Below, piece by piece: positions 18,669 through 29,251 of a stretch of DNA of 36,704 nt. Position numbers and translations under genes: made by a program. The notes under the pieces were generated by a model. The model saw only the letters and a list, made by a program, of their open reading frames with translations, did no database searches and was not told the origin of the DNA. Position 1 is the stretch's first letter. Every line of letters begins with the position of its first letter. This DNA comes from Pseudomonadota bacterium (GTDB lineage: Bacteria; Desulfobacterota; Desulfobacteria; Desulfobacterales; Desulfobacteraceae). The stretch spans positions 1 to 36,704 of the forward strand of contig JAHIVS010000270.1 in the NCBI GenBank assembly GCA_018816605.1. Reading direction: 5' to 3'.

Positions 18669-21600
18669 ATGACCCAGATTGAATTTTTATTTTTCGGTCC
18701 CCCGTGTTTCCGTGTGAACGGTACGGCAGTAAAGATCAGCCGGCGCAAGGCCGTTGCATTGGCCGCCTACCTGGCTGTTACCGCCAAACCCCATTCCAGG
18801 GAAAAACTGGCCACCATGTTCTGGCCGGAAAGCGACCCGGCAAGATCCAGGGCATCTCTTCGCAAGGCTCTTTCGCTCATAATAAAGGTGCTGGGCAAGT
18901 TCTGGCTGGACATTGACAGGGAAACCATCGGTTTTGTGCCCCATGAAAACCTGCAGGTGGATGTGAACCGGTTCCTGGAACTTGCCGCCGTGCTTCCCCG
19001 GAGCAAGGGGGGGGAAAAGCGGGACAGCCCAAAGCAGATCAAACCGGAACAGGCCAGATCGGAACAGATCAGGGCGCTTGAAGGGGCGGCCCATATCTGC
19101 AAGCCTTTTTTTCTTTCGGGGTTCTTTCTCAAAGATGCCCCGGATTTTGAGGACTGGCAGATGGAACAATCCGAACGGCTAAGCCGGCGGGCTGCTGAAG
19201 TCCTGGAATACCTTACCCGGTCAGGGATGAGCCGGGGCGCATATTCACAGGCGCTTTCCCATGCCCGGCAACTGGCCGCCCTGGATCCCCTGGATGAAGG
19301 TGCCCAGCGGCTGTTGATCCGCCTTTATGCAAAAACGGGGCAGCCCGGCGTTGCCCTCCGCCAGTATGAAAAATGTAAAACCCTGCTGGAAAAGGAACTG
19401 GGCGTCCTGCCTGAAGGCGAGACAAGGGCACTTGGGGAACGTATCCGGGAAGCCGGAAGGAACGGGGAGTTCAAATCAGCCGCAACCCTGCCCCGGGTCA
19501 GGCTTCCGGCCCAGTCCACACGCTTTGTGGGCCGGAAGGATGAAATAAAAACCCTGGAAGGACTAATGGCAGCACCTGAAGTACGGCTTCTTACCCTGAC
19601 CGGGCAGGGAGGCGTCGGCAAGACCCGGCTCGCCCTGGAGCTTGCTAAAACGCTTATAGATGGTTTTCCCCATGGGGTATTTTTTATCGGGATGGCAGGC
19701 TTAAGGTCAACCGGCGAACTTGCCGGCGAACTGCTCAAGGCCCTGGGGCTTGCCTCGGACAGAAAAACCGGATTGGAAGACCAGATATTTAATTTCCTGG
19801 GGCAAAAAAAAGTCCTGCTGGTGATGGACAATTTCGAACATTTGCCCCAGGCAGGAGGCCTTGTTCTGGAATTGCTGGCAAAGGCCCCTTTTCTTAAAAT
19901 CCTGGTCACATCAAGAACCAGGCTCATGCTCGAAGGGGAACATCTTTTCTGCATATCAGACCTTTCCCGTCCCAGGTTTTTTTTGACCGGCAGTGAAAAG
20001 GCTGCTGTCCTAGGCCGAGCAAAAGAAACCTGGGATGCGGTTGCCCTTTTCCTTTCCACAGCCGAAAGGGTCAGGCCGGATGTGAAACTGGACAGGGATA
20101 ATTTTCAGGCAATATCACGGATCTGCGACCTGACCGGGGGCATGCCCCTTGCCCTGATACTGGCAGCCGGATGGATGGATGTATTCCTTCCGGGAGAAAT
20201 TGCGGACAGGATCCAGGAAAGCCTGAATTTTTTAAGGACCGATATCCGGGATATGCCTGAACGTCACCAGAGCATATCGGCTGTATTTGAAACCTCCTGG
20301 TCCTGTCTGGCCCAAAAAGAGAAAGACCTTTTGATGAAGCTTGCCGCTTTTCAGCATAGCTTTACGCTTAAGGCGGTGTCCCGGGTTGCGGGAATGGACC
20401 CGGAAACCACAGCACTTAAGACAACGGGGCTGGTAAGAAAGTCGCTTCTCCGGGCAGATCCTGAAACCGGACGTTTTGAAATGCATCCTTTGCTGAGGCA
20501 GTATGCCCGAAAACACCTGTCGGCATCCGGCCTAGAGGATGAAATACTGGATGCCCATAAATACCATTACCTATCCCTGGCCCGTGAAAATGAGCACGGC
20601 TTGATCGGTGAGGCCATGTTGGCCTGCCGCAGAAACATGGATGCGGAATTTCCCAATATCCGTCAGGCATGGCAAAGAGCCGTGGACCAAAAAGATCTTT
20701 TTGCCCTGCTTGGTGCTGCAAAGGGTGTATACATCTATTTTGACATGCATACCCGGTACCATGAAAGCCGCGCCCTGTTTCAACCGGCCAAAGTCCTTGT
20801 CATGGAAATGGCCCGTACGGAACCCTGCCCGGATATGGCCCTAATTCTCCTTTGCCGGCTGGATATGGCCGCAAGGCAGCGGCTTTCTGCCCGGCAGGCG
20901 TCAGAGCTCAAGGAGATGGCCGGGCAGTGTTTAAGGCTTGCCGTAAAACAAAAAGACCGGTCCGGCCGGGCATTTCCCCTTTTGCTGATGGGGGCTGTGG
21001 CCCAGAAAGAAAATGCATGGGACAAAGCCATCCGCCTCTTTGGCCTGAGTCTTAAGGCGTATCCCGGCATTGAACAGGCCTTCTGGGTGACGGTCCGAAT
21101 GGGGTTGTGCCGGCAGGCCCAGGGCCGGATGGACAAGGCAATGGAATATTTCTGGCAGGGCCATAAGGCCGGGAGCGAAGGAGGCGATGCGATTAAAAAG
21201 GCATGGACCCTGTGCAATATCGGGATCTGCGAACTGGGCAAGGGCAACCTTGAATCAAGCCACCTTCGCCTCCAGGAGGCTGCAGACGCCTTTGGCCGGA
21301 TCAGGGCACCCTTAGGCATGATGGCCGCATACGAGGAACTGGGCCTGATCTCCCTGCTGAAAGGAGACCTGACCGGGGCTGAAGCCTTGACCGATTTGGC
21401 CCTGGATATTTCAGAAGCGTTAGGTCTTGCCCTGTCACGGTTCAGAAATACCCTTGCCCTCAAGGGCGTTATCTTGATTGCATCGGGCGACCCCGGCCGT
21501 GCCGAAACCTTTCTTATCCGGGCCCAGGAAAACGGACAATCCTTTTTCATGGCTGGCCTGGGGATGACCTTTCTTGCCTGCCTGAAAAAAGATCCGGCAT

Positions 21601-21842
21601 TGGCCAAATTCCACCTGGGGGCTTCTGCTGACACCCTGCCGTTGGTTCATAAACCCCATTTGAATCTTTTGCACCTGCTGGCCCGGGCCTGGGTTCTGGT
21701 TGTGGACAGCCAGGATCTGCAGGCAGCAAAGACCCTGGATTTAATCTGTCATCACCCACTAAATCTTTCCGAGCTTTTCCGGGCCTGGGACCTGCCTGGG
21801 CAGCTTCTTTGCCAACTGAAGTCCAGAGGGGACGATACTTAA
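18669..21842 (+). CDS. BTAD/SARP-like STAND ATPase transcriptional regulator with TPR tail
   Basis: A 1057-residue regulator. The N-terminus (IEFLFFGPPCFRVNGTAVKISRR, split here) is an OmpR/SARP-like winged helix, followed by a BTAD helical region (about 95-265; DVNRFLELA, RLLIRLYAKTGQPGVALRQY, LEKELGVLPEGETRAL). An NB-ARC-type ATPase follows, with Walker A GQGGVGKT at 312-319 and Walker B VLLVMDNFEHL, then a winged-helix tail (MHPLLRQYARKHL). Residues from about 600 to the end are TPR-like helical repeats that would sense an inducer or partner. The start is supported by AGGAG. It is divergent from the EamA/DUF169 pair, which are its natural candidate targets. Immediately after its stop lies an attC-like site and an AT-rich gene cassette. 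Confidence 0.87.
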   Translation: MTQIEFLFFGPPCFRVNGTAVKISRRKAVALAAYLAVTAKPHSREKLATMFWPESDPARSRASLRKALSLIIKVLGKFWLDIDRETIGFVPHENLQVDVNRFLELAAVLPRSKGGEKRDSPKQIKPEQARSEQIRALEGAAHICKPFFLSGFFLKDAPDFEDWQMEQSERLSRRAAEVLEYLTRSGMSRGAYSQALSHARQLAALDPLDEGAQRLLIRLYAKTGQPGVALRQYEKCKTLLEKELGVLPEGETRALGERIREAGRNGEFKSAATLPRVRLPAQSTRFVGRKDEIKTLEGLMAAPEVRLLTLTGQGGVGKTRLALELAKTLIDGFPHGVFFIGMAGLRSTGELAGELLKALGLASDRKTGLEDQIFNFLGQKKVLLVMDNFEHLPQAGGLVLELLAKAPFLKILVTSRTRLMLEGEHLFCISDLSRPRFFLTGSEKAAVLGRAKETWDAVALFLSTAERVRPDVKLDRDNFQAISRICDLTGGMPLALILAAGWMDVFLPGEIADRIQESLNFLRTDIRDMPERHQSISAVFETSWSCLAQKEKDLLMKLAAFQHSFTLKAVSRVAGMDPETTALKTTGLVRKSLLRADPETGRFEMHPLLRQYARKHLSASGLEDEILDAHKYHYLSLARENEHGLIGEAMLACRRNMDAEFPNIRQAWQRAVDQKDLFALLGAAKGVYIYFDMHTRYHESRALFQPAKVLVMEMARTEPCPDMALILLCRLDMAARQRLSARQASELKEMAGQCLRLAVKQKDRSGRAFPLLLMGAVAQKENAWDKAIRLFGLSLKAYPGIEQAFWVTVRMGLCRQAQGRMDKAMEYFWQGHKAGSEGGDAIKKAWTLCNIGICELGKGNLESSHLRLQEAADAFGRIRAPLGMMAAYEELGLISLLKGDLTGAEALTDLALDISEALGLALSRFRNTLALKGVILIASGDPGRAETFLIRAQENGQSFFMAGLGMTFLACLKKDPALAKFHLGASADTLPLVHKPHLNLLHLLARAWVLVVDSQDLQAAKTLDLICHHPLNLSELFRAWDLPGQLLCQLKSRGDDT

Positions 21843-23272: not shown

Positions 23273-23563
23273 TCAGCAGCACCCGCCATCTCCGCAGGAT
23301 GCATTTTCTTTGCCCTTTATCCAGACCTGGATAATATAGGAGGCTCAGCCAACCCCGGGGTTGACCGTCAGGGCTCCGGAGGGGCAGTTGGTCACACAGG
23401 CACCGCATTCCATACAGGCATCAAAATCCACGATCTGAGCCTTGGTGTTGTGCATCTCCAGCACATGGTGGGGACAGACTTCTGTGCACAGGCTGCAGCC
23501 GATACACTTTTGTGTGTCCAGCAAAAGGGTGGAAACCGCGTCTAAATATCTGAACGCTTTCAT
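23273..23563 (-). CDS. hgcB: HgcB, 2[4Fe-4S] ferredoxin for mercury methylation, with predicted selenocysteine at residue 73
   Basis: HgcB is the ferredoxin thought to reduce the HgcA corrinoid and to handle Hg(II) for methylation. Two cluster motifs are visible: CIGCSLCTEVCP (about residues 20-31) and CMECGACVTNCP. The frame then reads LTVNPGVG, UGA at 23347-23345 (codon 73), ASYIIQVWIKGKENASCGDG and GCC, and a second UGA stop at 23275-23273, for 96 residues. HgcB proteins normally have GVGC at this point and a Cys-Cys C-terminus, both matched only if the first UGA is decoded. A SECIS-like stem-loop directly follows the UGA, so selenocysteine is the best reading. In the ND132 protein the equivalent Cys73 and the terminal cysteine pair are reported as functionally important. 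AAGGAG lies 9 nt before the ATG; hgcA ends 19 bp upstream. A TGC-to-TGA nonsense mutation is the alternative. Confidence 0.9.
23317..23334 (-). promoter_or_regulatory. Bacterial SECIS-like element in hgcB
   Basis: In the minus-strand mRNA a perfect 7-bp stem, UUAUCCA with UGGAUAA, encloses the tetraloop GGUC. The loop begins 17 nt after the UGA at 23345; in the E. coli fdhF SECIS the same GGUC loop, within the same CAGGUCUG context, begins 18 nt after its UGA. The bulged U of the fdhF stem is not seen, a normal variation outside enterics. Confidence 0.85.
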
Positions 23564-23582: not shown

Positions 23583-24770
23583 TTAAAAGGCTGAGTAAAG
23601 CCAGAGCCCTGCGGACAGGACAAGGCTGGCCAGCTGCACCGGGATATAGCGTTTCATTTCCTTTTCAACTCCTGACGGGGAGGTGAAAGGGGTGGTGCCG
23701 GTAAAGTTCATGGCCAGAAAGGAACTGATGGCCACACAAAACAAAAATAGGGCAAGGGCGCTTGAGAAGGAAGCACTGGCCGAGGGCATGAGGCCTATCA
23801 TGAAAAAGGCGGCCAGACTGCCGATAATTCCCCCTTTGAGGGCAAATTCCCTGACAGGGATATAGGGCAGAAGGGCCGGGGTGATGACAGCGCCTGACAC
23901 TATGCCCAAGATAAGGGCGGCAAGGGCGGCAAGCCCCCGGGATCCGGCATCTGAAAAGGAAAACACGCCGGGTCCGATACCCGAGATCACCAGTAAGACC
24001 AGGGCTGCGATCATTGCCGGTTTGAGAACAATCTGCAGTTCCACCGGGGTCAGGACAATTCTTTCCACAAAACTAAAGGTCACGGTCCGCATGGCCGGGT
24101 CTGCTTTCCTATGGTTTTCCAGAAATTTTGGGATGTCCGCAGCCCGCACCGGGCCATAGACCACCCGGAATCCGGATTTTTTTTTCACACGCCTTGCCGA
24201 TACCCCTGTGGCACCCAGCTGGGGGACAATGACCCGCCTGTGGTCCACTATTTTATCAAGATTTGTGCTGTGAATCCGGTCTGCCAGTTCTTGGGTGGAA
24301 AAGGTTCCTTTTCCGGCAGCGCACCAGACATTGATCCCTTTGGTATCCAGGACCAGTATCCAGGCGTTCTGGCCGGAAAGTTCCCTTCGCAAATGATCAA
24401 AGCTCAGTTTGAAGTTGGCGGTGACAAGCACCTCTGAATTTTTGTCGGGAGACCCCAGGCCATAAAGTCCGGGGGCCACCTTGTATTGGTAACGGTTGAT
24501 TCCGCACCGGACAAGGACGGTTGAGACCCGGTCCCGGAGCCCCAGTCTTGTCTTTATCCGGGGTACTGGGCCTAGATCCGTGGTGATGAAATCTTCCACA
24601 TAGGCGCACAGGCTGTATCCCGGTTTTTCGTGGACGGATATAAAATTGGGGACAGGGCCGCAGCAATTGCTGTCTGTTTTGTCCATGGCGGGCATGAGTG
24701 TCACGCCTGAGGTGGACAGACAAGAAGAGGGGGGGTGTTTTTCCGGGGGGGTGTCTGAAACGTTTTTCAT
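23583..24770 (-). CDS. hgcA: HgcA, corrinoid methyltransferase for mercury methylation
   Basis: A 395-residue membrane-anchored corrinoid protein that transfers a methyl group to Hg(II). The diagnostic cap-helix motif NVWCAAGK is at residues 147-154, with Cys150 as the expected lower axial ligand of cobalt, followed by GTFSTQELADRI. Conserved flanking segments are YKVAPGLYGLG, VTANFKLSFD and VVPQLGATGV-like IVPQLGATGVSA. Residues from about 250 to the end form five hydrophobic helices. The N-terminus is about 55 residues longer than in Desulfovibrio-type HgcA and contains a Cys-Cys pair (DSNCCGPVP). The start at 24770 is preferred; a start at 24809 would overlap arsR and has no ribosome-binding site. 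It is in an operon with arsR upstream and hgcB downstream. Confidence 0.95.
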   Translation of the reverse strand: MKNVSDTPPEKHPPSSCLSTSGVTLMPAMDKTDSNCCGPVPNFISVHEKPGYSLCAYVEDFITTDLGPVPRIKTRLGLRDRVSTVLVRCGINRYQYKVAPGLYGLGSPDKNSEVLVTANFKLSFDHLRRELSGQNAWILVLDTKGINVWCAAGKGTFSTQELADRIHSTNLDKIVDHRRVIVPQLGATGVSARRVKKKSGFRVVYGPVRAADIPKFLENHRKADPAMRTVTFSFVERIVLTPVELQIVLKPAMIAALVLLVISGIGPGVFSFSDAGSRGLAALAALILGIVSGAVITPALLPYIPVREFALKGGIIGSLAAFFMIGLMPSASASFSSALALFLFCVAISSFLAMNFTGTTPFTSPSGVEKEMKRYIPVQLASLVLSAGLWLYSAF

Positions 24771-24792
24771 GGCTGTTTTTTGTCCCTTTGTC

Positions 24793-25059
24793 TTATAAGC
24801 GGTCAACATAATTTTTTATCTGGTTTAATACCTGTTTATCAACACAAAATCGGGTTTTGGGCCCTTCCACATCACCGCAGACAATCCCGGATGCTTTGAG
24901 CAGCTTCAGGTGCTGGCTGATGGTGGACTGGGAATAGGGGAAAATATTGACGATTTCTCCGCACACACAGGTGTTGATGCGGATGAGGTGCTCCACTATT
25001 TTTATCCGGGTGGGGTGTCCCAGGGCCTTGAATATTTTTGCAAGATCAATTGTGTCCAT
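24793..25059 (-). CDS. ArsR-family regulator of the hgcAB operon
   Basis: An 88-residue winged-helix repressor: IFKALGHPTRIKIVEHLI, NTCVCGEIVNIF, then the recognition region YSQSTISQHLKLLKASGIV and the wing EGPKTRFCVD. The CVCGE segment matches the ELCVCD-like metal-binding motif of ArsR/SmtB repressors, and a third Cys follows in the wing, so metal or metalloid (As, Hg) sensing is plausible. The start at 25059 is preferred because GAGGGG lies 9 nt upstream; a GTG at 25086 would add nine residues without a ribosome-binding site. An ArsR-like regulator of hgcAB is known in Pseudodesulfovibrio mercurii ND132, which supports the functional link. Its own promoter carries a palindrome. Confidence 0.9.
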   Translation of the reverse strand: MDTIDLAKIFKALGHPTRIKIVEHLIRINTCVCGEIVNIFPYSQSTISQHLKLLKASGIVCGDVEGPKTRFCVDKQVLNQIKNYVDRL

Positions 25060-25091
25060 CGGTTGATTCCCCTCTGTTTTCTTCACTTATC

Positions 25092-25243: not shown

Positions 25244-26470
25244 ATGGACATTCAATCTGAGTATTTTGATGACGGCAGCTCATTTATCGCAATCGATCCG
25301 GTATCGATCAATCCCGCGTATCTGATGGATTTTTCTCTGTTCGACCGGTATCTCCATAAAAAAGGGCTGTATAGATTCCGATGTCTTTTGACAGATTCCC
25401 GTTCCATTCCCCAAAACCGTCTCATGGAACTGCTGCGGTCATGGGACACGGTTTATATCCATAAAAATCAGAGCCCAAATTATACCGAATATGTTAAAAA
25501 CAACCTGGAATTTATCCTGAATCATGGCGAGATTGACGTCAGAAAGAAAACCCAGACCCTTACAACCCTCTCTACACAGGTGATTAACGAATCCTTTGCC
25601 GCAAATTTTGCCTCCAAGCACGATTGCCTCCAGGTGGTTCAAAATATCGAAAAACTGATTTCCCAGGCCATGGAGTTTATCTCGGACATTGAATCCTTGA
25701 AAGGAATTGCCGATCTCATCGGCCATGATTATCAAACCCATACCCACTCGATCAAAGTGGGGTGGCTGACGGCGACCTTTATCAATTCCAACAAAGAACT
25801 GTTCGGGGTGCAAACCAAGTCACAATTAAGGGATATTATGATCCAGGCGACCGTGGCAGGCTTTCTCCACGACATTGGGAAAATAAAAATTCCCAGGCAT
25901 GTGATCAATAAAGCAGGCAAGCTGAGCAACATTGAGTATGTCCTTATCCAATCCCATACGGCCTATTCCACCAGTCTGCTGTTCGAAACCCAATTGCCCC
26001 GGTCTGCCATGCAGGCCATTTTATACCACCATGAAAATGAGGACGGCAGCGGCTATCCCTGTGGTCTGTCCGGTGATCAGATCCCCCTGATTGCAAAAAT
26101 CTGTCATATCGCCGATGTGTTTGATGCCCTGACCTCAAAGCGGCCCTACAAGCCTGCAAGAACACCTTATGAGGCGTTGAAGATCATGGCAGGAGAAAAC
26201 CCCTACCTGGAGCTGTTGAGACAATTTGAAGCCGAGGTCGATGGAAATCTTAAAATTCCTGTGGTCGCCATTGTCCGGGATGACTACGAGGCCAAACTCC
26301 GCCGCCTTCGGGAACGGGAAATCCTGGAGGAAGAGGCCCAGAAAAGGGTGGAAGTCCGGAGCAAGCTCCGGGACAAGGGTATGTCCCATTGTTTTAACAA
26401 AGACCTGCTCAGGCGGTTTATTCTGACCATCAATAAATCGGAAAGCTTTGATCTGTCCGGTCTATTGTAG
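25244..26470 (+). CDS. HD-GYP domain cyclic-di-GMP phosphodiesterase-like protein
   Basis: A 408-residue cytoplasmic protein. The C-terminal half has a complete HD-GYP signature: HDIGKIKIP with the HD pair at 209-210, SHTAYS, YHHENEDGSGYP (HHE at 262-264, GYP at 270-272) and ADVFDALTSKRPYKPARTP. Enzymes of this class linearise cyclic di-GMP. The N-terminal half (residues 1-150) matches no sensor domain I recognise. It is transcribed away from arsR-hgcAB; the 184-bp interval between start codons includes the arsR promoter, so a regulatory link is possible but unproven. No strong ribosome-binding site is seen before the start at 25244. Confidence 0.9.
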   Translation: MDIQSEYFDDGSSFIAIDPVSINPAYLMDFSLFDRYLHKKGLYRFRCLLTDSRSIPQNRLMELLRSWDTVYIHKNQSPNYTEYVKNNLEFILNHGEIDVRKKTQTLTTLSTQVINESFAANFASKHDCLQVVQNIEKLISQAMEFISDIESLKGIADLIGHDYQTHTHSIKVGWLTATFINSNKELFGVQTKSQLRDIMIQATVAGFLHDIGKIKIPRHVINKAGKLSNIEYVLIQSHTAYSTSLLFETQLPRSAMQAILYHHENEDGSGYPCGLSGDQIPLIAKICHIADVFDALTSKRPYKPARTPYEALKIMAGENPYLELLRQFEAEVDGNLKIPVVAIVRDDYEAKLRRLREREILEEEAQKRVEVRSKLRDKGMSHCFNKDLLRRFILTINKSESFDLSGLL

Positions 26471-26781: not shown

Positions 26782-26806
26782 AAAAAAAGGCCCTGGGAAC
26801 AGGCTA
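26782..26806 (-). terminator. Probable intrinsic terminator after the hybrid kinase gene
   Basis: On the minus strand AGCCTG and CAGGGCCT, overlapping the kinase stop codon, form a short GC-rich hairpin with one bulge and a UUCC loop, followed by seven U. Confidence 0.5.
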
Positions 26807-29251
26807 GTTGATCCAGGCGGTGATGGTTTTAATCAGGTTTTCAGGTTTGACCGGCTTGGAGATATAATCGTTCATGCCGGCTGCCAGACATCTTTCACGA
26901 TCTCCCTTCATGGCATTGGCCGTCATGGCGATGATGGGAATATCTTTTCTGGCATCCGTCATTGCTCTTATGGCTCGTGTGGCCTCGTACCCATCCATTT
27001 CCGGCATTTGAACATCCATGAGAATCAGGTCGTAGGGTGCCGATTCCACGGCTTTTACCGCTTGCTTTCCATTTTTAGCCGTGTCTGCAGAGTATCCGAA
27101 TTTTTTCAGCTGATGAATGGCAACTTTCAGGTTGATGGTATTGTCTTCGGCCACAAGGATACGGGTTGCCTGTCTTTTATATTCCTTGAGCGTATGGCAG
27201 GTGATGACGGTTTTTTCTGCCCCTTTACCCTCTTCTTCCCAGGAAACCCCCAATACGGAGATGATGGCATTGTAAAGATCCGATTGCTTGATGGGTTTGT
27301 TGAAATAAGCGTCAATACCGATATCTTTCATTAGAGCGCCGTCTCCGCGCACCCCCCCGGAGGTGAGCATGATGATGCGGGTGTCAGCAAGCCGTTTGTC
27401 CGCTTTGATCAACAGGGCAAGCTGTTTTCCATCCATTTTTGGCATCATCATGTCCAGGATGGCAACATCATAGGTTTTCCCTTTTTCCACGGCAGCTGTC
27501 AACTCTTCTAATGCCTCTTTACTGTTTGAAACCACCTTGGGGTCGTATTTCCACGATCTCAGGTGGGCGGCTATGATTTCGCGGTTAATGGTATTGTCAT
27601 CCACCCCGAGAATTTTTTTCCCCTGGATATCTGCGGGAAATTTCATGGCCAGGGGGAGGGTCTGGGACAGGTCCTGTTTTTCAAAAATGCCGGTAAACCA
27701 GAACCTGGATCCCCGGCCTTCTTCGCTTTCCACCTGGAGTGTTCCGCCCATCATCTCTGTCAGTTTTTTTGAAATGACCAGCCCAAGCCCTGTGCCCCCG
27801 TATTTTCGGGTTGTGGAGGCATCCACCTGGGAGAAGGGTTTGAACAGGCGGTTCCGTCTGTTTTCGGGTATGCCGATACCGGTATCGGCGACTTCAATGA
27901 GCAGGGTTACCCTGGAATCGGTTTCTGATTCCAGGGTAACCCTTATGGAGATGGACCCCTGGTCTGTAAATTTAATGGCATTGGTGGCAAGGTTCAAGAG
28001 GATCTGGCGAAGACGTCCCGGGTCCCCCCGCAGCAGAGAAGGGATTTCGGGGTGGATAAAGCAGGCCATCTCAATCTTCTTTTCATCTGCCTTAAGGGTC
28101 AGCATTTCAATGATCCCTTCAAAGGTAACCCTGATGTCAAAATCCAGGAGTTCAAATTCGAGCTTGCCGGACTCTATCTTTGAAAAATCAAGAATCTCGT
28201 TGATGATTCCCAGAAGTGCGTCTGCACTGACTTTGATGTTTTTGGCATACTCCTGCTGGTCCTTGTCCAGGCCGGTATCCAATAAAATGTCGGTCATACC
28301 GATGATGCCGTTCATGGGGGTTCTGATTTCATGGCTCATATTGGCAAGGAATTGGCTTTTTGCCCGGTTGGCAGCCTCTGCCTCCCTGGCCAGGCGCTGT
28401 ACCTGTTCAATGGTGGCTTCCAATTCATTGTTGGTGATTTTCAGCTGCCGGGTACGTTCAGCAACCCGCAGTTCCAGTTCTTCATTGAGTTTTCTTTCTT
28501 TTTCCTGGGCCTCTTTCCGGTCGAGAATCTCCTGGCCCAGCAATTCGTTGATGCGGGTCAAGGATTCCTCTCGCAGCTTGACCTGGTTGGACATGTCCTG
28601 AAATTTCGAGGTAATAATCCGGATCTCTTTTTGGGAGGCGGATTCAAACGCATAGTCATAATCTCCCTTTGCAGTCTGTTCTATCCCTGTGATCAACTGG
28701 TTTAAAGGTTTTTGAAGGATTGTCCGGATAAGAAGTCCCGTAGCCGCAACCAGCGCCGCCAATACCACGCACATGGTAATCATGACAGAGACAAGCAGAT
28801 CCCTGTTCTGTTTTTTCAGGGCGCTTGTGGTCAGGCTTATTTTTACCTTGCCAATGATCTGATTTTCATATTTGATCTGGGTGATGCGTTCGAGTATATC
28901 CCCGGCGTTTTTATCAATGTAGGTGAAAAGGGAAGTGCCGTTGCTGTCCATGACATCAAGTCCTGCAATGAAATTATTTTTCAGAAAGGATGTGCTGATG
29001 AGGGTGATGTTATCTTCGTCAAAATTCCAAATGGGCAGGGCGAGGCTTTGCTGCAGAACCGAAATATATTCAGATGATTTGAGTTGATACAGGCGGTCGG
29101 TTCTTTTGGAGAGCACCAGATAGCCCAGACTGAGCAAGAGGATTGTGGTAAGTGCAGCAACTGCGGCCTGGCTGATGATCATATCGCCGGTAAGGGATTT
29201 TCCCCAAAATCTGGATTCTGTTTTTTTTTTTGCCGGATCTGTCCTGTCCAT
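26804..29251 (-). CDS. Membrane-bound hybrid histidine kinase with two receiver domains
   Basis: An 815-residue BarA-like kinase. A transmembrane helix (about 25-48) is followed by an extracytoplasmic sensor region of about 100 residues, a second helix (about 152-176), HAMP, a coiled coil (about 225-295), HisKA with His307 in [15 protein letters not shown], and HATPase with N424, DTGIGIP and GGTGLGL. Two receivers follow: the first with DDNTIN and Asp600 in [12 protein letters not shown], the second with AEDNTIN and Asp746 in [13 protein letters not shown] and SKPVKP. There is no histidine phosphotransfer domain, so a separate HPt protein is needed. The signal is unknown. Confidence 0.93.

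What the first reader, a model, noticed from the sequence alone, without database searches (positions are those of the whole stretch)
23273..23563. HgcB appears to be a selenoprotein: in-frame UGA at the conserved Cys73 with a textbook SECIS-like stem-loop
The hgcB frame does not end at the first UGA (23347-23345). It continues for 23 codons in the same frame with the normal HgcB tail (ASYIIQVW, CGDG, terminal Cys-Cys) before a real stop. The UGA replaces exactly the cysteine of the GVGC motif. Immediately downstream a 7-bp perfect stem with a GGUC loop (23317-23334) starts at the right distance for a bacterial SECIS. Cys73 and the C-terminal cysteines of HgcB are, to my knowledge, reported as needed for Hg methylation. 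A selenol there would bind Hg(II) far more tightly and could change the methylation step. I know of no description of a selenocysteine HgcB. Standard gene calling would report a truncated 72-residue protein.
Basis: partly seen in the sequence, partly recalled or inferred. Interest (0 to 1): 0.97.

Follow-up and report, generated by a model that had tools for sequence, protein, structure and literature searches.

The report
Selenocysteine HgcB in mercury-methylating Desulfobacula relatives
In this relative of Desulfobacula the mercury-methylation protein HgcB has a UGA codon, predicted to be read as selenocysteine, where most other HgcB proteins sampled have a key cysteine; such HgcB proteins were already proposed in 2023, and all 53 sampled members of its likely family in which hgcB was found carry the same UGA, often beside an HgcA protein without a cysteine pair that most others have.

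Summary
hgcB (23563-23273, minus) has an in-frame UGA at codon 73, exactly where HgcB has its conserved cysteine, then 23 conserved codons and a perfect 7-bp stem with a GGUC loop (23334-23317). The selenocysteine reading is strongly supported. Of 215 distinct hgcAB loci, 64 have UGA at codon 73 and all 64 keep the perfect stem; none of the 151 cysteine-type loci has it. Silent sites in the stem are frozen only in the UGA type. The nearest genome held has selA, selB, selD and tRNA-Sec.
It is not new as a kind: a 2026 review lists HgcB with motif GVGU as a selenoprotein, citing Haft and Gwadz 2023, which I could not read.
Possibly new: the UGA form is in 53 of 53 sampled family members with hgcB and in none of 64 loci fetched from outside the class. 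No locus has selenocysteine both in the HgcA arm (33 loci) and in HgcB (64). In the UGA type the HgcA arm's Cys-Cys is missing in 49 of 62 readable loci. This suggests, on one or two origins only, that Sec73 and the HgcA pair share a mercury-handling role. That role, and Sec insertion itself, are untested.

The parts
23273..23563 (-). hgcB, 96 codons plus UGA stop; codon 73 is UGA (predicted Sec)
   Evidence: NF040864 122.8 bits read through
23345..23347 (-). in-frame UGA at the position of the conserved Cys73
   Evidence: UGA at the same codon in 64 of 215 distinct loci
23317..23334 (-). SECIS-like stem-loop: TTATCCA - GGTC - TGGATAA, beginning 10 nt after the UGA
   Evidence: perfect in 64 of 64 UGA loci, 0 of 151 Cys loci; silent sites frozen
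23273..23275 (-). true stop codon, also UGA, after the terminal Cys-Cys
23583..24809 (-). hgcA ORF (408 codons from the first ATG; ATG at 24770-24768 is a plausible start)
   Evidence: NF040863 447.9 bits, cut-off 275; start choice by reading the sequence
24660..24665 (-). HgcA N-terminal Cys-Cys pair (TGC TGC, CCGP), present in this window; Sec-containing or missing in many relatives
   Evidence: comparison
24321..24323 (-). HgcA cysteine of NVWCAA, the cobalt ligand by homology to Cys93 of ND132
   Evidence: read; role from PMC7305189 and PMC11588087 passages
24793..25086 (-). ArsR/SmtB-family regulator gene directly upstream of hgcA
   Evidence: ORF; NF033788 67 bits, cut-off 55 (bases 24794-25059); arsR upstream of hgcAB reported in PMC10349881

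Best explanation
The hgcB gene at 23563-23273 (minus strand) has an in-frame UGA at codon 73 followed by a conserved stem-loop with a GGUC loop, and this UGA is predicted to be translated as selenocysteine, giving a 96-residue HgcB with a likely selenol in place of Cys73. How it would work: SelD and SelA charge tRNA-Sec; SelB binds the stem-loop 10 nt after the UGA and delivers Sec; translation continues through the helical extension to the terminal Cys-Cys and ends at the second UGA. Shown here: the codon, the stem and its silent-site conservation, the UGA in 53 sampled family members, the machinery in the nearest genome. Inferred: Sec insertion itself; and that Sec73, like Cys73 in the published HgcAB model, receives Hg(II) or methylmercury from the C-terminal Cys-Cys tail after methylation at the corrinoid of HgcA. 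Inferred with less weight: once HgcB has Sec73, the N-terminal Cys-Cys (or Cys-Sec) of HgcA becomes dispensable, so the two sites share one mercury-handling job.
For: UGA at codon 73 in 64 of 215 distinct hgcAB loci, the rest TGC 92 and TGT 59; 53 of 53 matching genomes of the nearest genome's family. Stem 7/7 Watson-Crick in 64/64 UGA and 0/151 Cys loci; loop begins GG in 63/64 against 12/151. Frozen codons in UGA loci: Ile77 ATT 64/64, Ile78 ATC 64/64, Gln79 CAG 63/64, Ile82 ATA 64/64; 50 in-class Cys loci mix codons there. Val80, which makes the GGU loop, in 62/64 UGA loci (Gly in 2); in-class Cys loci have Thr, Gly or Ser in 45 of 50. Window against six same-genus relatives: 22 synonymous and 9 amino-acid codon changes after the UGA, 103 and 78 before it. 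Machinery in G001: selA 613.6, selB 347.3, selD 369.0 bits, all over cut-off; tRNA-Sec 76.9 bits against 47. C73A abolishes methylation in ND132 (PMC7305189 passage). HgcA pair missing in 49 of 62 readable UGA loci and 5 of 48 readable in-class Cys loci; on the tree 11 against 4 state changes on lengths 11.6 and 21.6, two-sided p 0.004; by a stricter rule 38 of 62 against 3 of 48, 14 against 2 changes, p 2.3e-5.
Against: No protein-level evidence. The window's own assembly is not held; machinery was seen only in the nearest genome (24% shared 31-mers), and tRNA-Sec passes its cut-off in 307 of 389 genomes of the class and in 5 of 14 control genomes, so it is not specific. Base pairs are invariant, so there is no covariation; five of the seven pairs follow from the residues IIQxWIK. 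All UGA loci but L126 form one clade of the HgcA tree, and a single origin is not rejected (p-AU 0.277, 58-row subset), so the HgcA association rests on one or two origins; the independent-pairs test has 2 pairs and is not significant. The HgcA pair is kept in 13 of 62 readable UGA loci, this window included. Its state was read by a motif rule in a poorly aligned arm. By hand, the 20 'lost' Cys-type loci include 3 with CC just inside my anchor, 4 with CxC and at least 3 unreadable. One UGA locus, L017, has a Cys-UGA in frame about 51 codons upstream of the anchor; I read it as non-coding because it lies before the first Met.
Confidence: 0.88

Rival explanations
1. UGA is a true stop and HgcB is a functional 72-residue two-cluster ferredoxin; the tail is a relic.
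For: The 72-residue form alone passes the NF040864 cut-off, 100.9 against 99 bits, and has both cluster motifs.
Against: In 64 UGA loci the stem codons after the UGA are frozen although the clade spans a tree length of about 12; the tail changes mostly silently against six same-genus relatives, 22 silent to 9 amino-acid changes in all, though one of the six shows 1 to 3. C73A abolishes methylation in ND132 and the double C94A/C95A mutant loses 95% (PMC7305189 passage).
Confidence: 0.04
2. Sequencing error or frameshift artefact at a Cys codon.
For: No raw reads are available here.
Against: The same UGA in 53 genomes of the family and in 9 loci (8 genomes) of six other families, including isolates Desulfospira joergensenii DSM 10085 (L069) and Desulfocicer vacuolatum DSM 3385 (L098).
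Confidence: 0.01
3. UGA is read through as another amino acid (Trp, Cys) by a variant code or near-cognate suppression.
For: Read-through alone would also keep the tail in frame.
Against: UGA is also the stop of the same gene; the complete Sec machinery is in the nearest genome; the stem is absent from all 151 Cys loci; the residue is Cys in all 151 non-UGA loci.
Confidence: 0.03
4. The missing HgcA Cys-Cys reflects drift of one lineage's N-terminal arm and has nothing to do with Sec73.
For: Essentially one UGA clade; single origin not rejected; independent-pairs test not significant with 2 pairs.
Against: State changes recur within the clade, 11 or 14 by rule, while the in-class Cys loci change 4 or 2 times on a longer tree; the arm itself persists, with an LMPSM-like stretch in 52 of 64 UGA loci by a loose pattern. 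The outlier L126 has UGA and no HgcA pair at the site, while its sister L171 has Cys73 and CC.
Confidence: 0.5

Closest known systems
Selenocysteine HgcB, motif GVGU (NF040864; Haft and Gwadz 2023, seen only as cited in PMC13188914 and PMC11588087)
   Same: Same family, same motif GVG-Sec at the same cysteine.
   Different: No difference found; this is a further member. The original paper could not be read, so its taxa, SECIS and any HgcA comparison are unknown to me.
HgcB of Pseudodesulfovibrio mercurii ND132 (Cys73, Cys94, Cys95)
   Same: Two-cluster ferredoxin, C-terminal Cys-Cys, next to hgcA.
   Different: Cysteine at 73 in ND132; Sec predicted here.
Selenocysteine HgcA, motif CU (NF040863 entry in PMC13188914, refs 61 and 63)
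   Same: The other half of the same gene pair; Sec in a cysteine pair.
   Different: In the loci here Sec lies in the N-terminal arm of HgcA; 33 of 215 loci, all with Cys73 HgcB. The window's HgcA has CC.
Putative mercuric transport selenoprotein (PF02411, C/SxxU, table of PMC13188914)
   Same: Another predicted mercury-handling selenoprotein.
   Different: A transport protein of another family; no comparison was run.

Membership tests
HgcB (NF040864) | score above the curated cut-off | tested here: met
   122.8 bits against 99
HgcB (NF040864) | two CxxCxxCxxxCP cluster motifs | tested here: met
   CIGCSLCTEVCP and CMECGACVTNCP
HgcB (NF040864) | Cys, or Sec as the review lists it, at residue 73 in GVG[C/U] | tested here: met
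   GVG-UGA, not Cys; the review gives GVGU for NF040864; that the UGA is decoded as Sec is predicted, not shown
HgcB (NF040864) | C-terminal Cys-Cys | tested here: met
   ...GDGGCC
HgcB (NF040864) | adjacent hgcA with NVWCA motif | tested here: met
   hgcA 23583-24809, NVWCAA
bacterial selenoprotein | in-frame UGA aligned with a Cys of homologues | tested here: met
   64 UGA against 151 TGC/TGT at codon 73
bacterial selenoprotein | stem-loop with G in the apical loop just after the UGA | tested here: met
   stem in 64 of 64 against 0 of 151; the rule itself is recalled
bacterial selenoprotein | selA, selB, selC, selD in the genome | tested here: inconclusive
   all four in the nearest genome G001; the window's own genome is not held
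bacterial selenoprotein | selenium in the purified protein | not testable with these tools
   needs 75Se labelling or mass spectrometry
Sec-HgcB of Haft and Gwadz 2023 | motif GVGU in an NF040864 protein | tested here: met
   GVG-UGA; motif from the review's table

The most novel reading that the evidence does not exclude
Sec73 of HgcB and the N-terminal Cys-Cys/Cys-Sec arm of HgcA are interchangeable mercury-handling sites of one complex: methylators carry a selenol in HgcA or in HgcB, not both, and gain of Sec73 frees HgcA to lose its arm cysteines. If so, laboratory work on an HgcA model that starts after this arm would have missed half of the mercury relay.
Probability: 0.33. Interest if true: 0.75.

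Novelty: new member of a known kind. Interest (0 to 1): 0.45.

Why it matters
HgcAB makes methylmercury, and Cys73 of HgcB is essential in ND132, yet a family of sulfate reducers around Desulfobacula appears to use selenium there. Protein collections hold these genes largely as 72-residue truncations, so surveys and expression constructs can miss the tail. Selenium dependence, the frozen stem-loop and the link to the HgcA cysteine pair can be tested in cultured strains such as Desulfospira joergensenii DSM 10085 and Desulfocicer vacuolatum DSM 3385.

Tried and rejected
Single-sequence folding of the window stem against shuffles was uninformative (z -0.67). Rfam at gathering thresholds and ARAGORN found nothing in the window. 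Covariation was not pursued because the pairs are invariant. Two UGA origins: the best tree needs two changes, but one origin is not rejected (p-AU 0.277, 58 of 208 rows; the full-set run did not finish). L126 might carry a recombined 3' end of hgcB (93% to L098 over 54 nt after the UGA, at most 70% ungapped to any other locus over 216 nt before it), but its HgcA sister L171 already has a near-stem, so convergence is equally possible; left open. Independent-pairs test: 2 pairs, not significant. First counts of the HgcA pair took one unreadable arm, L020, as 'lost'; one search repeats them without it and is what I cite. My arm parser stops at a UGA not preceded by Cys; this hid three Sec forms in Cys-type loci (L197, L220, L240, added by hand) and was checked for UGA-type loci. 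A first crude motif read showed an Asn-UGA in L140; its duplicate L061 has a readable arm without Sec. A paper search for truncated hgcB in Desulfobacula found nothing. Passages of PMC12013277, PMC10469668 and PMC11205478 (it lists Desulfospira joergensenii as a putative methylator) added little.

Full report
What is there. The minus strand 23563-23273 encodes HgcB with UGA at codon 73, in the motif GVG-UGA, followed by ASYIIQVWIKGKENASCGDGGCC and a second UGA that is the stop. The read-through scores 122.8 bits with NF040864, the first 72 residues alone 100.9, cut-off 99. Upstream on the same strand lie hgcA (NF040863, 447.9 bits) and an ArsR-family gene (NF033788, 67 bits), an arrangement reported for bacterial methylators (PMC10349881, passages).

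Relatives. The window's assembly is not held; the nearest genome, G001, shares 24% of sampled 31-mers and has HgcB at 92% identity with the same UGA. Its locus has the same contig coordinates as L040, titled Desulfobacula sp. S2_67. In a class-wide sample 160 of 389 genomes matched HgcB at E 1e-22. All 53 matching genomes of G001's family have TGA at codon 73; 9 more UGA loci in 8 genomes came from six other families (f12 three, f26 two, f22, f30, f55, f58 one each), with Cys-type members also seen in f12, f26, f30 and f58. In the phylum-wide sample 108 of 395 matched at E 1e-20; the 64 distinct loci from outside the class that were fetched and kept all have Cys (not every match was fetched). 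The searches used a UGA-type query and so favour near relatives. Named isolates with UGA: Desulfospira joergensenii DSM 10085 (L069) and Desulfocicer vacuolatum DSM 3385 (L098).

Data set. From 289 records (window and 288 loci), 215 distinct loci with hgcA and hgcB remained after dropping 56 duplicates, 9 without upstream hgcA and 7 without a usable hgcB hit; 2 had no hit at all. Codon 73: 64 TGA, 92 TGC, 59 TGT.

The stem-loop. The 7-bp stem is perfect in 64 of 64 UGA loci and in 0 of 151 Cys loci; the loop begins GG in 63 of 64 against 12 of 151. Silent sites are frozen in the UGA type: ATT 64/64, ATC 64/64, CAG 63/64, ATA 64/64 at codons 77, 78, 79, 82, while codons 74, 84, 85, 86, 88 and 90 vary; 50 Cys loci of the class mix codons at 77-79 and 82. 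The UGA clade spans a tree length of about 12, so recency does not explain this. The loop also shapes the protein: residue 80 is Val in 62 and Gly in 2 of 64 UGA loci, and Thr, Gly or Ser in 45 of 50 in-class Cys loci. The residues IIQxWIK already give five of the seven pairs (read from the codons), so the gene is pre-adapted; the chance of a full stem with a GG loop among uniform synonymous codons is 3.7%.

Machinery. G001 has selA (613.6 bits), selB (347.3), selD (369.0, itself with one in-frame TGA) and tRNA-Sec (76.9 bits, gathering 47). Of 16 genomes with UGA-hgcB given to pass the cut-off for selA, 14 for selB, 15 for selD. Of 14 control genomes 1, 2 and 2 pass. tRNA-Sec passes in 307 of 389 genomes of the class and in 5 of 14 controls, so its presence is not specific.

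Annotation. A search of 5.8 billion proteins with the first 72 residues gave 117 hits, 82 ending in GVG, of which 73 are exactly 72 residues. With the read-through, 674 hits, 120 listed; the best listed is 74% identical and has Leu at 73.

HgcA. The window's HgcA has Cys-Cys (CCGP) in its N-terminal arm. Beside Cys73 HgcB the arm has CC in 92, Sec in 33 (Cys-Sec 30, Leu-Sec 2, Thr-Sec 1), neither in 20, unreadable in 6; beside UGA-type HgcB it has CC in 13, neither in 49, unreadable in 2, Sec in none. In the window's class alone: Cys73 40 CC, 3 Sec, 5 neither, 2 unreadable; UGA 9 CC, 34 neither, 2 unreadable. Fisher p 5e-14 ignores kinship. On a 208-row HgcA tree the UGA loci form one clade of 63 (SH-aLRT 99) plus L126. 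The pair's state changes 11 times in the clade and 4 times in in-class Cys loci on a longer tree (p 0.004); with the rule 'no CC, C-Sec or CxC within 45 residues', 14 against 2 (p 2.3e-5). Against this: one or two origins only, single origin not rejected, independent pairs not significant, motif calls in an unaligned arm, and one UGA locus (L017) with an in-frame Cys-UGA far upstream that I read as non-coding.

Mechanism. PMC7305189 (passages) reports that C73A abolishes methylation in ND132, places Cys73 at the start of the helical extension about 13 angstrom from cluster B, and proposes that the C-terminal cysteines deliver methylmercury to Cys73. I infer that Sec73 takes this role as a selenolate. 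Why selenium helps is not known; stronger but exchangeable Hg-Se bonding is general chemistry, recalled. That the HgcA arm pair acts in the same relay is my inference.

What is known. Review PMC13188914 (table and reference passages) lists HgcB GVGU and HgcA CU as selenoproteins with Haft and Gwadz 2023; PMC11588087 (passages) mentions the same. Haft and Gwadz was not held, so nothing of its text was seen. Searches for hgcB or hgcA with selenocysteine or selenoprotein and with selenium or selenol terms (10 of 13 listed) showed no title or abstract start that reports an experimental test; only these listings and the passages named were seen, and the library omits most subscription papers. I saw no mention of the HgcA/HgcB exclusion in the passages read; the unread paper may hold it.

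Verdict. A correct and well-supported observation of a published kind of selenoprotein, with a possibly new evolutionary link to HgcA.

Noticed in passing
L096, L105, L106, L108, L113, L114, L115, L117 and others (33 of 215 loci): HgcA with Sec in the N-terminal arm (mostly C-UGA-GP). In L114, L117, L105 and L193 the cobalt-ligand Cys is residue 114 after the UGA, while ND132 numbering puts it at 93, so the ND132 gene model would start about 21 residues after this site. Whether ND132 has the UGA was not tested.
   Followed up: partly
L014 (also L046), codon 91 of hgcB: A second in-frame UGA in the tail (ASC-UGA-DSGCC); early stop, second Sec or assembly error is undecided.
   Followed up: partly
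L126 (G135): UGA-type hgcB 3' end together with a Cys-type hgcA and Cys-type hgcB front; recombination or convergence.
   Followed up: partly
L018 and L123 (G367): Two different UGA-type hgcB copies in one genome, one beside an HgcA with CCGP.
   Followed up: no
P0001: A UGA-clade-like HgcB with Leu at residue 73 (GVGLATYIIQVW): Sec loss or sequencing error.
   Followed up: no
L017, about 51 codons upstream of the HgcA anchor: In-frame Cys-UGA-Gly before the first Met of HgcA in a UGA-type locus; read as non-coding.
   Followed up: partly
window 18669-21842 (+): Large BTAD / NB-ARC / TPR regulator-like protein a little downstream of the hgc locus.
   Followed up: no
window 26804-29251 (-) and 25244-26470 (+): Histidine kinase with receiver domains, and an HD-domain protein next to arsR-hgcAB.
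   Followed up: no
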